64,000 nucleotides of DNA, taken from the NCBI GenBank assembly GCA_022827625.1, contig JAJEIE010000016.1, forward strand, positions 1 to 64,000, given 5' to 3'. The notes below the pieces were generated by a model. That model did no database searches and had not been told where the DNA came from. It saw only the letters and a program-made list of their open reading frames with translations. Every line of letters starts with the position of its first letter. Position 1 is the first letter of the stretch. This document shows, piece after piece, positions 9,653 to 15,577 of this stretch. The position numbers and the translations under genes were made by a program. The DNA is from Candidatus Poribacteria bacterium (GTDB lineage Bacteria > Poribacteria > WGA-4E > WGA-3G).

Positions 9653-9928
9653 ATATTCCTGTAAGGTCACCCTTTCAACTCGCGATACCTTTGCGACAAT
9701 GCTCAAAAATCTGATAATTGAATAGCTCTGATAATCAGACCAGTTTTTCTTGACAGCTCTTACCAAATATGCTATTATTTCCAAAATAGACTGTGACAGC
9801 GGTGGCACAGTGTCGTTCGGAAGTTTCCATTATAGTGAAACTAAAAAATAAACAGACATTCCGTGCTGCGTTTGACTGTATCAGTAATCCTAAACTTCAC
9901 TATAATTCTACATCATACGATCCGATTT

Positions 9929-11068
9929 ATGAAAACTACCCATAAGATCCTTTTCCAAGATGCCCGAGAGTTAAAAGAAATTGCTTCAGAAAGCGTTGAC
10001 CTGGTCGTCACCTCTCCACCATATCCGATGATTGAAATGTGGGATGAAATGTTTAGCAACCAGAATCCAAGAATTCAGGATGCGTTAGCGGGCGGTGATG
10101 GAAAATCGGCGCATGCGTTGATGCACGAGATCCTTGATTCTGTATGGGATGAAGTATTTAGGGTCTTAAAAAACGATAGATTTGCATGTATCAATATAGG
10201 CGATGCAACAAGGAAGGTTAGAAACGATTTTTGTTTATATTCAAATCACGCGAGAGTTTTGACCTATCTCTTAAATATCGGGTTTTCAGCACTACCTGAT
10301 ATCCTCTGGCGAAAACAGGCCAACACGCCCAATAAATTTATGGGATCAGGCATGCTACCTGCAGGTGCCTACGTAACGCTAGAACATGAATACATTTTAA
10401 TAGTCCGAAAAGGTTCAAAAAGAGAATTTAAAACAGAAAAAGAAAAACAGAATAGACGCGAAAGTGCGTTATTTTGGGAAGAACGGAATATCTGGTATTC
10501 GGATGTTTGGACAGATATTAAGGGAACAGAACAGAAACTTTCCAATGCAATATCCCGATCGAGGAGTGCAGCATTTCCCTTCGATTTGGCTTATCGACTG
10601 ATAAATATGTACGCTGTGAAAAGTGATACAATACTTGACCCGTTTTTAGGGACAGGAACCACGGTTGCTGCTGCGATGACATCGGGACGCAATAGTATCG
10701 GTGTCGAAATTGATAAAAGCTTTCAACATATTTTATGTCCAATCGCACACGGCATCATCGATTTTTCAAACGATTATTTGCACGACAGGTTACTCAGACA
10801 CGTAGCGTTTGCAAAAACCCGAACTGAAAAATCGGGCCCGTTAAAATACAGAAACAAGCATTACGGCTTCCCAGTGGTGACGAGTCAGGAACAGTTCATT
10901 TTGTTGAACGGCTTAAAAGAGGTTCGAGACTGTGGCGATAATATTTTTGAAGTCATGTATACAGCAGAGCCGCAAGATTTGAATTTTCAGCAACCCTCAG
11001 CATCTATAGCAGGGAAGAAAGTGAAGTCTTACAATAGACCTATTCAACCGAGTATGTTGGACGTGTAG
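9929..11068 (+). CDS. Site-specific DNA methyltransferase, N4-cytosine/N6-adenine type, TSPPYP motif
   Basis: VDLVVTSPPYPMIEMWDEMF; ILDPFLGTGTTVAAAMTSGRNSIGVEID. Confidence 0.92.
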   Translation: MKTTHKILFQDARELKEIASESVDLVVTSPPYPMIEMWDEMFSNQNPRIQDALAGGDGKSAHALMHEILDSVWDEVFRVLKNDRFACINIGDATRKVRNDFCLYSNHARVLTYLLNIGFSALPDILWRKQANTPNKFMGSGMLPAGAYVTLEHEYILIVRKGSKREFKTEKEKQNRRESALFWEERNIWYSDVWTDIKGTEQKLSNAISRSRSAAFPFDLAYRLINMYAVKSDTILDPFLGTGTTVAAAMTSGRNSIGVEIDKSFQHILCPIAHGIIDFSNDYLHDRLLRHVAFAKTRTEKSGPLKYRNKHYGFPVVTSQEQFILLNGLKEVRDCGDNIFEVMYTAEPQDLNFQQPSASIAGKKVKSYNRPIQPSMLDV

Positions 11069-11095
11069 GAACTTCATATCGGACAAAAAAAATAT

Positions 11096-11677
11096 ATGCA
11101 AATCAAATTAACAAATACTGAAATTCAGGAATATGTAGATGCCCCTGCTTGTGAATTTCCGAAGTATACGACCCAATTAATAAATCTCGCAAACCAAAAT
11201 TCGCAGGCTACGCGCCCAAGACACGTTGGACAAATGACTGAACTGATTCAGGATTTTCCAGGAAAGTCTTTTGAAGAATGGGTGCAATGGTATCAAGAAC
11301 AATATCCTGGAGCAATTGACAATGCGACAGAAAAAATCACTGCAATGATAGAAAATCTTGACCTGGCACTACCCAAAATTGACCGAGCTATGGTTAAAGC
11401 ATGGGTAGAGGATCTGATCCTTGTCAAAACCTATACAGGACTTAAATTTCAGGAGGCAATCCTAAGAAAGTTGGCAGAAATAAAGGACTGCGACTACCGT
11501 TTGGCAGAACCTCATGAGGAATCACAAGGTATAGATGGATTCGTAGGTGAAGAGGCATATTCCATCAAGCCAAGCAGCTACGAGGCAATGCCATATTTAT
11601 CAGAATCCATAGAAGTGAAGATGATTTTTTATGAAAAAAGGAAGGATGGTGTAGTGTTTGAAATCCCAGAGGATTAG
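11096..11677 (+). CDS. Putative type II restriction endonuclease, MjaI-like family
   Basis: PKYTTQLINLANQNSQATRPRHVGQMTELIQDFPGKSFEEWVQWYQEQYPGAIDNATEKI..; directly downstream of the methylase; family recalled by eye. Confidence 0.72.
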   Translation: MQIKLTNTEIQEYVDAPACEFPKYTTQLINLANQNSQATRPRHVGQMTELIQDFPGKSFEEWVQWYQEQYPGAIDNATEKITAMIENLDLALPKIDRAMVKAWVEDLILVKTYTGLKFQEAILRKLAEIKDCDYRLAEPHEESQGIDGFVGEEAYSIKPSSYEAMPYLSESIEVKMIFYEKRKDGVVFEIPED

Positions 11678-11760
11678 CAGTAGAAGAACCTATAGGTTGC
11701 GTTAATTTAACAAATTCACATACTGTAGACCTTACCTATCTATCAGAAAACACTAAAAAA

Positions 11761-12762
11761 ATGGACGAAAAACGAGCCAGTGGACGCTACTACACCCGTG
11801 GGAACCCGTTTCAACTAAAACCGTTCCAGACGTGGGCAAAAGAGATCAACTTAGAACAACAGACAGCTTTAGAACCCTTTGCCGGTGCTAAAGACATCCC
11901 ACAACTGATTGACGCAGCACAGCTTCGGTGTCAAGACTGGGCATTTTTTGACATTGAACCAGGGGCAAAAGGGATTGTGCCACGAGACACGCTCGCCGAC
12001 TTCCCGACCGGCTTCAATGTTTGCATCACCAATCCCCCGTGGTTAGCGCGCAACTCCGCAACCCGTCGTGGCTTACCGTTCCCAGAAGCAACCCAATATG
12101 ACGATCTCTACAAATACGCACTTGAGCAGTGTCTGACGCATTGCGGATGGGTCGCAGCAATTATCCCAGAAGCATTCATTCGGAGCGGTCTGTTCCTACA
12201 ACGGCTACGCGACTTCATCTCCTTAGTCCCTCAAACACAACACAAGACTACGGAAGAAAATGGGAAAAGAGACACTTCCTATATGTTTGAGGATACCGAA
12301 CACCCTGTGGGACTCGCCTTATTCACACCGGACGCAACACCCGATGTTAGGGTCTGGCGTAACAATCAACCTCTTGGTGGCCTCGGCAAACTACGAACAC
12401 ACCTTCCCCAACCTTCTCGTAATCGCAGCATTGTGTTCAACGACCCAAACGGAAATCTCGGACTCATCGCCATAGACAATACCGTTTCCGCTTCCATCCG
12501 TTTCTGTCCACCAGAAGAACTGAAAGACTACCCGATCCGTGTTCACTGTCGTTCCATTACAAAAATTGGCGTGCCATGGCACGTGGATATAGACCTGCTC
12601 AATACTTACTTGACAACAATCCGAGAGAAAACCCACGATGTTTTTTTAACGGCTTTCAAAGGCTTACGCCGCGATGGACATTACCGCCGCCGATTAGATT
12701 GGGCTCTGACGCGAGCAATTGTTGACACACAGCAACTACAACTTGCAACGAAAACCAAATAG
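11761..12762 (+). CDS. SAM-dependent DNA methyltransferase-like protein with NPPW motif
   Basis: TALEPFAGAKDIPQLI; GFNVCITNPPWLARNSATRRGLPFPE. Confidence 0.8.
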   Translation: MDEKRASGRYYTRGNPFQLKPFQTWAKEINLEQQTALEPFAGAKDIPQLIDAAQLRCQDWAFFDIEPGAKGIVPRDTLADFPTGFNVCITNPPWLARNSATRRGLPFPEATQYDDLYKYALEQCLTHCGWVAAIIPEAFIRSGLFLQRLRDFISLVPQTQHKTTEENGKRDTSYMFEDTEHPVGLALFTPDATPDVRVWRNNQPLGGLGKLRTHLPQPSRNRSIVFNDPNGNLGLIAIDNTVSASIRFCPPEELKDYPIRVHCRSITKIGVPWHVDIDLLNTYLTTIREKTHDVFLTAFKGLRRDGHYRRRLDWALTRAIVDTQQLQLATKTK

Positions 12763-12765
12763 AAT

Positions 12766-13083
12766 ATGAACAGCCAAAAATTAATCTGCCTACTTCTACT
12801 GACAGCACTCATCACGTTTGCGGGATGCATACCCGGCGATGGCAAACACACCGCAGAAAAACCCGCAGGCTTTTTTTGGGGCATCTGGCACGGCTGGATC
12901 GCGCCAATATCGCTGATTTGGCACCTATTTGACTCAGATATCCGTCTCTACGAACCAAACAACACTGGCTGGTGGTACGACTTCGGATTTTACATCGCCG
13001 TTATCAGCGGTTTCGGCGGCATCTCTTTTTCACGAAAGAAACGTAAGAAGGTTGTCGTACAGGAGAGCAGTAATTCTGAATAG
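12766..13083 (+). CDS. Small membrane lipoprotein, conserved hypothetical
   Basis: Lipobox ITFAGC; GFFWGIWHGWIAPISLIWHLFDSDIRLYEPNNTGWWYDFGFY. Confidence 0.85.
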   Translation: MNSQKLICLLLLTALITFAGCIPGDGKHTAEKPAGFFWGIWHGWIAPISLIWHLFDSDIRLYEPNNTGWWYDFGFYIAVISGFGGISFSRKKRKKVVVQESSNSE

Positions 13084-13201
13084 GTTGTACCTGTTATAGC
13101 GAAGACTGGCAGTCTACGTTACATACTGCTGAATGCTGTCTGCAATTTTATCGTCCGAAGTAGGATTATCGGATTTGCGGGATTAAGGTGCGGTAGAAGA
13201 C

Positions 13202-13220
13202 GGGCGAGACAACCTCGCCC
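13202..13220 (+). repeat. Palindromic repeat GGGCGAGACAACCTCGCCC
   Basis: Same core at 15558-15574. Confidence 0.75.
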
Positions 13221-13265
13221 CTACGGCACATTTACCCTAAGATTTAAGGAATAGGCAGTCAATAA

Positions 13266-13873
13266 CCCCCCGCTCAAGCATGGGGACTTGTGAAAAGGCA
13301 CGCACCATAGAACGTGCGAAGAAATGGAATCAGTCCTTTAGTCCTTTGGAAGTCGGTAAGCAGTGGTTCTACACAGAAATAGAAAAAAGGTGGGAACTGC
13401 TAACACTTCAAGGATACGAAACGAAAGAAATACGCGATAGATTAGGTCTCAAGAAGTCGTCAAAGAAACTTGCTGATATTTTTTCAGCACATTGTGTAGA
13501 TTCTTGGTGTTTAGCGTATCACGCTATCGGAGGACAGAATATCCTTGATAACACAGATATTCTCTGTATAGCACCTATACCGATACGTAGACGTGAACTC
13601 CATAGGCAGAATCCACAAAAAGGTGGGAAAAGACCCCGCTACGGTGGCACGACTTGGAACGGACTGGTAAAGAATATCCTCGTTAAACACGCTAAATATG
13701 GATTAGCCCGTATTAGCGGGTTCGGCAAACAAGGTATTTCTCTCTACTCCTTAGAGGGAAAACGCCTCTGTCAAAACGCAAAACCACAAGATTTTAGAGT
13801 GCTAACACGACTAAACTTTAACTACAGGAGCGGTGTTTCCTCCCCCTGCTAAAGCAAGAGGGTCTCTACACCG
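13266..13873 (+). mobile_element. Remnant of an IS605-like/ISC-type element carrying a truncated RRXRR (IscB/IsrB-like) gene
   Basis: Left hairpin CCCC-GCT-CA-AGC-AT-GGGG (13268-13285) and right hairpin cggtgtTTCCTCCCCCTGCT-AA-AGCAAGAGGGTCTCTacaccg (13831-13873) bracket the ORF. Confidence 0.6.
13280..13852 (+). pseudogene. 5'-truncated RRXRR-domain (IscB/IsrB-like) RuvC nuclease, C-terminal half
   Basis: EKARTIERAKKWNQSFSPLEVGKQWFYTEIEKR...GYETKEIRDRLGLKKSSKKLADIFSAHCVDSWCLA (RuvC-III HxxD)...RRRELHRQNPQKGGKRPRYGGT..GLVKNILVKHAKYGLARISGFGKQGISLYSLEGKRLCQNAKPQD. Confidence 0.72.
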
Positions 13874-13882
13874 AATATTTTG

Positions 13883-15511
13883 ATGAAAACTTTTGAGACG
13901 CGAGGGCCCGTGTATCGTGAGCGTAACTATGTCGTCCGACGTACCGCGGAACTTGCGGATTTTATTAAACGCGTCAAACAAGGGCGATACATCGTCATCT
14001 TTGCGCCGCGGCAAACAGGCAAAACCACCTTTTTCCGATGGGCACTGGACGCTCTCGCAAACGAAGAGATACCCTATTTTCCAATCCAACTGGATTTTGA
14101 GGAGTATAGAACCTTTTCGCCTTCCGATTTTTATGACTACCTCTGCAAAGATATTCGCAAAGAAATTAAAAACGTTTTTGAAAAACGCGGTGAAGAAATT
14201 TCTGATAATTTAAGGCAATTTCTGGAAAATGCAAAGATTACCAATCACGTTTCAATGAGAGAGTTTTTTGAAGATCTTGCGAATTTGCTGATTGGCAACG
14301 TGGACTCGCAAATGACACCTTTGACCCAGCGGGTTGTTATTATCATTGACGAATTTGATGGCGTTCCGCAAACTGTCGTAAGCAATTTCCTCCATTCGCT
14401 CCGACGCATCTATCTCTCCGATATCGCATCACGGTGTCCCTTTAGCCTCGGCCTCGTCGGCGTTAAGAGCATAACACAACTGAACTATGACCGCTCTATC
14501 TCGCCCTTCAATATTCACGACGAGTTCGCCTTGCCCAACTTTACGCTCGAACAGGTGCAAGAACTCCTGGGACAATATACCGATGCAGTTGGTCAACCCT
14601 TTGCCGCTGAAGTCATCACAACACTTCACAAACAGACAGCAGGTCAACCCTTCCTTGTAAATCGGCTCGCACAGATCCTTACTGAAGAACTGGATCTTCC
14701 AAAAACTGAGCGAATTGACATGACTCACTTTTCGGAAGCACACACGCGGCTGCTGCGGGAACAGAACACTAACACCCAGCATCTCCTAACCAATATCCGA
14801 AAGAATCCCCGCTTTGAAACTATCCTCATGGAAATTGTCTCCTACGATAGAGGTGTCGAATTCAACCTGCACAACGAATATATTGACGAACTTGTGACTT
14901 ACGGGGTTATTTCGGAAGGTGCTGACGGGATGTGTGAAATTGTCAACCCGATTTATCAGTATTGCATCATGCGGGCATTCCAACCTTTGATAAATGGGCT
15001 GGAACGTGAATATTTTCCTGAAGATATAGAAACCGATTTTTTAGATTATCTCGCAGCCGATGGACAGATTCGCCTCCAGTCTCTGCTTGATAATTTTCAG
15101 GATTTTATCGCACGCGCCGGATATCGAATTCTGCAAGTGCCGGAAACCCCGAAAGAATTTGTTGGGCAGTACCTCCTTTTCGCATATCTTGAGCAGTTTG
15201 TGCGGTTGGTACGTGGGCGAATGTACCTTGAAGTACCAACCGGACGCGGAAGGACAGATCTGCTCATTCTGCACAACACACGAAAATACATCGTCGAAAC
15301 CAAGATTTGGGAAGGGGAACGTTCCTATGCAGCAGGAAAGCAGCAACTGGCAGCATATATGCGGTTAGAGGGTGCAGCGGAGGGGTACTATATTGTGTTC
15401 GATCATCGTAAGAACCCAATACCTCGAACAGAGACAGAGGTTGTCGAAGGCTTCACCATCCGAAACTACGTCATCCCTGTCGTGCAAGAACCGCCCTCAC
15501 GGAGAACATAA
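13883..15511 (+). CDS. AAA-like ATPase with C-terminal PD-(D/E)XK nuclease-like domain
   Basis: Walker A FAPRQTGKTTFF; Walker B VVIIIDEFDG; C-term RTDLLILHNTRKYIVETKIWEGERSYAAGKQQLAAYM (D..ExK). Confidence 0.87.
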   Translation: MKTFETRGPVYRERNYVVRRTAELADFIKRVKQGRYIVIFAPRQTGKTTFFRWALDALANEEIPYFPIQLDFEEYRTFSPSDFYDYLCKDIRKEIKNVFEKRGEEISDNLRQFLENAKITNHVSMREFFEDLANLLIGNVDSQMTPLTQRVVIIIDEFDGVPQTVVSNFLHSLRRIYLSDIASRCPFSLGLVGVKSITQLNYDRSISPFNIHDEFALPNFTLEQVQELLGQYTDAVGQPFAAEVITTLHKQTAGQPFLVNRLAQILTEELDLPKTERIDMTHFSEAHTRLLREQNTNTQHLLTNIRKNPRFETILMEIVSYDRGVEFNLHNEYIDELVTYGVISEGADGMCEIVNPIYQYCIMRAFQPLINGLEREYFPEDIETDFLDYLAADGQIRLQSLLDNFQDFIARAGYRILQVPETPKEFVGQYLLFAYLEQFVRLVRGRMYLEVPTGRGRTDLLILHNTRKYIVETKIWEGERSYAAGKQQLAAYMRLEGAAEGYYIVFDHRKNPIPRTETEVVEGFTIRNYVIPVVQEPPSRRT

Positions 15512-15557
15512 TCCGTCAGATTGTGCCTTTTATCGCACAGCCTGACAGTAGAAGACA

Positions 15558-15574
15558 GGCGAGACAACCTCGCC
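15558..15574 (+). repeat. Palindromic repeat GGCGAGACAACCTCGCC
   Basis: Shared core with 13202-13220. Confidence 0.7.
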
Positions 15575-15577
15575 CTT

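What the first reader, a model, noticed from the sequence alone, without database searches (positions are those of the whole stretch)
13266..13873. Truncated RRXRR / IscB-IsrB-like RuvC nuclease between IS605-type hairpins
The 190-aa ORF matches the C-terminal half of RRXRR proteins (EKART..AKKWNQSFSPLEVGKQWFY; HCVDSWCLA RuvC-III; RRRELHR..RPRYGGT; HAKYGLARISG..QGISLYSLEGKRLCQNAKPQD). RuvC-I and RuvC-II and the N-terminal RRXRR domain are absent, and no HNH is visible. Hairpins with the same GCT-NN-AGC core bracket the ORF; the ORF's ATG and stop lie inside these hairpins. This looks like an internally deleted ISC/IS605-like element.
Basis: partly seen in the sequence, partly recalled or inferred. 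Interest (0 to 1): 0.65.

Follow-up and report, generated by a model that had tools for sequence, protein, structure and literature searches.

The report
Internally deleted IsrB mobile element
A 625-bp remnant of a common RNA-guided-nuclease (IsrB) mobile element, with its guide-RNA gene and the first half of the nuclease deleted, has landed between the ribosome-binding site and the start codon of an ATPase gene in a Candidatus Poribacteria genome; the remnant is ordinary, but this element family's habit of landing on start codons is worth a look.

Summary
The 190-aa ORF is the C-terminal half of an IsrB protein. The same Poribacteria genome has full-length copies 80-85% identical over this stretch, and nearly every genus member carries them at about 340-390 aa. 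Full copies are about 1,258 bp: left-end hairpin, structured RNA, RRXRR-RuvC ORF, right-end hairpin. The window copy is 625 bp (13258-13882). About 650 bp is missing between the left-end hairpin and the codons after RuvC-II, which removes the omegaRNA, RRXRR/PLMP, RuvC-I, bridge helix and RuvC-II. HNH was never present: this is IsrB, not a degraded IscB. The exact empty site exists in sister genome G022. No other genus member has this junction, while other copies carry different internal deletions, so this is a private deletion derivative and not a conserved short gene. It is almost certainly dead as a nuclease. Any movement would need a transposase supplied in trans.

Side finding: these elements insert immediately 5' of RTGA. 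In 22 of 72 sites this is a start codon preceded by a Shine-Dalgarno, against 2.9% of background sites. Their right end keeps an AGGAG-type motif beside a hairpin, 6-10 nt from the start codon once the hairpin is looped out. A built-in ribosome-binding site is possible but unproven.

The parts
13258..13882 (+). whole deleted element, 625 bp (full-length relatives about 1,253-1,270 bp)
   Evidence: exact empty site AAGGAATAGGCA|ATGAAAAC in sister genome G022, L125; lengths of full copies
13258..13292 (+). left end (LE): GTCAATAACCCC-hairpin-GGGGACTTGTG; also the first 35 nt of the omegaRNA in full copies
   Evidence: same motif 668-705 nt upstream of the RuvC-II codons in full copies, 23 nt here
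13292..13293 (+). deletion junction: LE joined directly to the codons just after RuvC-II (TTGTGA/AAAGGCACG)
   Evidence: comparison with L002, L003, L044, L060, L075, L118; no other copy in 38 genus genomes at up to 3 mismatches
13280..13852 (+). 190-aa ORF: C-terminal half of IsrB (HNH-linker region, RuvC-III HCVDSWCLA, TAM-interacting C-terminal domain); first residues MGTCE come from the LE and junction
13826..13873 (+). right end (RE): AGGAG followed by a two-part hairpin (outer stem CGGTGT/ACACCG 13831-13836 with 13868-13873, inner hairpin around GCTAAAGC)
13874..13882 (+). AATATTTTG, RE tip between hairpin foot and target
13883..13886 (+). target / TAM-like tetranucleotide ATGA, here the start codon of the AAA_35 gene plus one base
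   Evidence: NTGA is the TAM of DtIsrB (PMC9581776)
13246..13250 (+). AAGGA, presumed native Shine-Dalgarno of the AAA_35 gene, 7 nt from its ATG at the empty site, now separated from it by the element
13883..15511 (+). AAA_35-type ATPase gene (host gene into whose 5' leader the element is inserted; not part of the element)
   Evidence: PF14516 4.1e-18; 99% identical orthologue without the element in G022

Best explanation
This is a non-autonomous internal-deletion derivative of an IsrB-type OMEGA element of the IS200/IS605 superfamily. Shown: both ends and the right-hand half of the element are kept. A single deletion of about 650 bp joins the left-end hairpin to the codons after RuvC-II. The element sits immediately 5' of ATGA, between the Shine-Dalgarno and the start codon of an AAA_35 ATPase gene, with no target duplication. 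Inferred: an IsrB element inserted by single-strand transposition driven by a Y1 transposase acting in trans, and lost its interior before or soon after insertion. The 190-aa product, if made, cannot nick DNA: it lacks two of the three catalytic RuvC motifs, the bridge helix, the PLMP domain and any cognate omegaRNA. The end hairpins could still be substrates for a transposase supplied in trans.
For: Paralogues in the same genome at 85%, 80%, 80% and 64% identity, two of them uninterrupted 356-390 aa frames. Genus-wide full-length copies. Full copies hit RRXRR (2.4e-29, 5.4e-31), IscB NF040563 below its cut-off and solved IsrB 8DMB at 3.7e-35. The upstream RNA of full copies shows compensatory pairs (22 of 33) and a weak HEARO match starting at the LE. 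LE-to-RuvC-II distance is 668-705 nt in nearly all full copies and 23 nt here. Exact empty site with 100% identity across the join. Junction private to this genome. Independent internal deletions in other copies: L080, L094, L112 and L145. No excess of substitutions at conserved positions (2, equal to the family median) and dN/dS about 0.09 to near relatives, as among full copies, so the deletion is probably recent.
Against: The ORF is intact and in frame from an ATG inside the LE hairpin, which could suggest use; chance alone gives one frame in three, and the deletion looks recent. No Y1 transposase with matching ends was found in this genome: three Y1_Tnp hits, none flanked by these ends. 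Whether the deletion preceded or followed insertion is not resolved. The genome is a MAG, so a collapsed assembly cannot be excluded without reads.
Confidence: 0.93

Rival explanations
1. A domesticated short protein: the remnant keeps the TAM-reading C-terminal domain and part of RuvC and has been retained as a nuclease-dead DNA-binding regulator of the AAA_35 gene, in the manner of the nuclease-dead TnpB-derived regulators (recalled, not tested).
For: Intact ORF, low dN/dS, conserved residues kept; position directly upstream of the AAA_35 start codon.
Against: No guide RNA, no bridge helix, no PLMP domain, which contribute to target recognition or activity in DtIsrB (PMC9581776). Junction unique to one genome. 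Low dN/dS is explained by ancestry as a full-length gene.
Confidence: 0.03
2. A mobile miniature lineage: the deleted form itself is transposed in trans and exists as several copies (like the palindrome-associated short derivatives known for IS200/IS605 elements).
For: Both ends intact; insertion is recent relative to a 99%-identical sister locus.
Against: Single copy in its own genome and none in 37 other genus genomes; no exact match in viral contigs.
Confidence: 0.12
3. Assembly artefact: two copies of the element were merged, giving a false deletion.
For: MAG assembly in 41 contigs; two other IsrB copies in this genome lie at contig ends (L004, L005).
Against: Unique flanks on both sides, junction far from contig ends, no parent copy within 15% identity to merge with, and similar deletions in single-contig genomes (L080 on the 5.85-Mb OX639992.1).
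Confidence: 0.03

Closest known systems
IsrB (OMEGA nickase, e.g. DtIsrB, PDB 8DMB)
   Same: Full-length copies in the same genome align over RRXRR/PLMP, RuvC-I, BH, RuvC-II and RuvC-III, have no HNH, carry a structured upstream RNA and sit next to an NTGA-type TAM.
   Different: The window copy has only the C-terminal half and no omegaRNA body.
IscB / HEARO (ISC elements)
   Same: Shared ancestry; NF040563 and RF02033 give sub-threshold matches to full copies.
   Different: No HNH in any copy examined; scores below curated cut-offs.
IS200/IS605 deletion derivatives and short palindrome-ended elements
   Same: Two end hairpins kept, interior lost, no target duplication, fixed flanking tetranucleotide.
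   Different: Half of the accessory nuclease ORF is retained and only one copy is known.

Membership tests
IsrB protein (functional) | N-terminal RRXRR/PLMP domain | tested here: not met
   No Pfam hit for the window ORF; present in L002 and L003
IsrB protein (functional) | RuvC-I, bridge helix and RuvC-II | tested here: not met
   Deleted; ORF starts after VEDI
IsrB protein (functional) | RuvC-III and C-terminal (TAM-interacting) domain homologous to DtIsrB | tested here: met
   phmmer to 8DMB, query 17-177, E 2.5e-11
IsrB protein (functional) | No HNH domain in the full-length family | tested here: met
   Full copies 340-346 aa, no HNH hit
IsrB element | omegaRNA between the left end and the ORF | tested here: not met
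   Window has 35 nt of LE then codons; full copies carry about 205 nt with covariation
IsrB element | Family-specific LE and RE hairpins and adjacency to NTGA | tested here: met
IS200/IS605 superfamily | Insertion without target duplication next to a fixed short target | tested here: met
   Exact empty site with ATGA on the right
IS200/IS605 superfamily | Mobilised by a Y1 (HUH) TnpA | tested here: inconclusive
   Three Y1_Tnp genes in the genome, none with matching ends
IscB | HNH inserted in RuvC | tested here: not met
   Absent in window and full copies
RNA-guided nicking activity | Guided nicking of NTGA-flanked DNA | not testable with these tools
   Needs biochemistry

The most novel reading that the evidence does not exclude
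The IsrB elements of Poribacteria (full and deleted) use RTGA as landing site and TAM and so tend to land between a gene's Shine-Dalgarno and its start codon. Their right end has evolved a replacement ribosome-binding site: AGGAG directly beside a hairpin that, when looped out, puts it 6-10 nt from the new start codon. The element could thus live in front of genes without silencing them, and even the half-deleted window copy keeps this device.
Probability: 0.3. Interest if true: 0.6.

Novelty: new member of a known kind. Interest (0 to 1): 0.22.

Why it matters
As a nuclease remnant it adds little: one more decayed OMEGA element. It is useful because an exact empty site fixes the element's edges and target, and because it led to a testable regularity: these elements land on start codons far more often than chance and keep a Shine-Dalgarno-like motif at the right place. 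If that motif works, it would explain how an element that inserts between a gene's ribosome-binding site and start codon stays tolerated.

Tried and rejected
Pfam and NCBIfam scans of the ORF: no hit, because the models cover only the lost N-terminal half. Rfam on the whole window: only a tRNA. Folding 13083-13290 as omegaRNA: z = -2.2, but this is host flank also present at the empty site, so not element RNA. DNA search of 13084-13300 in the own genome: only short matches to a dispersed flank repeat, no second copy of the junction. Y1_Tnp genes of this genome as autonomous partner: no matching ends. Same junction in genus genomes and in viral contigs: none. Papers on IsrB or IS605 insertion between Shine-Dalgarno and start codon: none recognised among the titles and abstracts returned. 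The dN/dS test cannot tell selection after the deletion from selection before it. Considered and not done: structure prediction of the 190-aa remnant, since homology and missing motifs already settle the question.

Full report
OBSERVATION. The 190-aa ORF is at 13280-13852 on the + strand. The ORF has no Pfam or NCBIfam hit. A direct sequence search of solved structures gives one match, IsrB 8DMB, E 2.5e-11, covering query residues 17-177.

FULL-LENGTH RELATIVES. The window's own genome (5.0 Mb, 41 contigs) has four more copies. Two are uninterrupted long frames (L002, 356 aa; L003, 390 aa by the first possible start) and two start at contig ends (L004, L005). Of 98 genomes searched as relatives, 41 have matches. 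Nearly all genus members have them, up to 13 per genome, and most sit in frames of about 340-410 aa. The named hits of a separate genome scan are all Candidatus Poribacteria. From the conserved MFVPV start, L002 and L003 encode 340-346 aa, hit RRXRR at 2.4e-29 and 5.4e-31, IscB NF040563 below its curated cut-off and, for L002, IsrB 8DMB at 3.7e-35 over residues 3-282. No HNH was found. The family is therefore IsrB, which lacks HNH by definition (PMC9581776).

WHAT IS MISSING. Full copies begin with GTCAAYWACCC-hairpin-GGGCTTGTG (with variants), 668-705 nt before the codons that follow RuvC-II. In the window this distance is 23 nt. The intervening roughly 205-nt RNA region of full copies folds with compensatory changes in 22 of 33 predicted pairs and in two copies gives weak, sub-threshold HEARO matches that start exactly at the left end. 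In the window only its first 35 nt remain. The ORF also lacks RRXRR/PLMP, RuvC-I, bridge helix and RuvC-II, and starts with MGTCE encoded by the left-end hairpin and junction. RuvC-III (HCVDSWCLA) and the C-terminal region remain.

EDGES AND INSERTION. The AAA_35 gene downstream has a 99%-identical orthologue in G022. The two loci align up to 13257 and again from 13883, with nothing in between in G022...AAGGAATAGGCA|ATGAAAAC.... The element is therefore 13258-13882 (625 bp), with no target duplication and ATGA on its right, placed between a presumed Shine-Dalgarno (AAGGA, 13246-13250) and the ATG of the AAA_35 gene. Ten further genomes with recognisably the same neighbourhood also lack it there.

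IS IT A SHORT GENE OR A DELETION? The junction sequence, at up to 3 mismatches, occurs in none of 37 other genus genomes. Other copies have their own, different internal deletions: L080 (frameshifted, 33-aa product), L094 and L112 (frameshifted), L145 (in frame, with the RuvC-III Asp changed to Gly). The window ORF departs from conserved positions no more than its full-length relatives (2; median 2) and its dN/dS to near relatives is about 0.09, as among full copies. This fits a recent deletion and gives no evidence of use after it. The shared history as a full-length gene explains the low ratio.

MECHANISM. Best supported: a dead, non-autonomous deletion derivative of an IsrB element. Shown: ends, deletion, empty site, target. 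Inferred: transposition in trans by a Y1 enzyme. The genome has three Y1_Tnp genes, none with these ends. Not resolved: whether the deletion preceded the insertion.

SIDE FINDING. The flanks of 72 non-redundant insertions in this family were rejoined in a script; nearly all end next to RTGA. In 22 the RTG opens a frame of at least 60 codons preceded by a Shine-Dalgarno at normal spacing, against 2.9% of RTGA sites in the surrounding DNA; a frame of at least 60 codons follows in 43 of 72 against 26%. A few sites are related between sister genomes, so the p-value printed there is somewhat optimistic. The right end carries an AGGAG-type motif next to the outer stem in 70 of 80 copies, and the stem foot lies 6-10 nt from the RTG. 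The Arg codon there is AGG in 61 of 64 Arg-coding cases, while AGG is 110 of 1,179 other Arg codons; the following Ser is AGC/AGT in all 59 Ser cases against 276 of 994 elsewhere. Copies with other amino acids there often keep a shifted AAGGA or AAAGGAGG. This could be a built-in ribosome-binding site bridged by the hairpin, or a constraint from transposase recognition; nothing here decides between them. Two of six cyanobacterial plasmid copies inspected also end next to an annotated start codon with a GGAG(G) 7 nt before it.

VERDICT. Observation confirmed and interpretation supported, with refinement to IsrB and corrected edges. The element itself is ordinary.

Noticed in passing
window 13246-13257 / 13883 and 72 related loci: IsrB elements of this family sit immediately 5' of RTGA, often exactly between a Shine-Dalgarno and a start codon (22/72 versus 2.9% background).
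   Followed up: partly
window 13826-13882 and about 80 related loci: AGGAG-type motif beside the RE hairpin with strong codon bias (AGG 61/64, AGY 59/59) and 6-10 nt from hairpin foot to RTG: possible hairpin-bridged ribosome-binding site.
   Followed up: partly
L145 (G031:C90): Another IsrB deletion derivative, in frame (RuvC-I and bridge helix lost) and with the RuvC-III Asp changed to Gly (HCVGSWCLA); a candidate nuclease-dead form.
   Followed up: no
window 9863-12762: MjaI-type restriction-modification cluster: DNA methyltransferase, RE_MjaI endonuclease (PF09568, 2.8e-61) and a second Eco57I-like methyltransferase just upstream of the element.
   Followed up: no
window 13883-15511: AAA_35 ATPase with a weak PD-(D/E)XK/NERD-like C-terminus; the family is strongly amplified in this genus, up to 25 copies per genome.
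   Followed up: no
window about 13193-13220 and 15548-15575: Short dispersed repeat (GGGCGAG-CTCGCCC type) recurring in the window and elsewhere in the genome.
   Followed up: no
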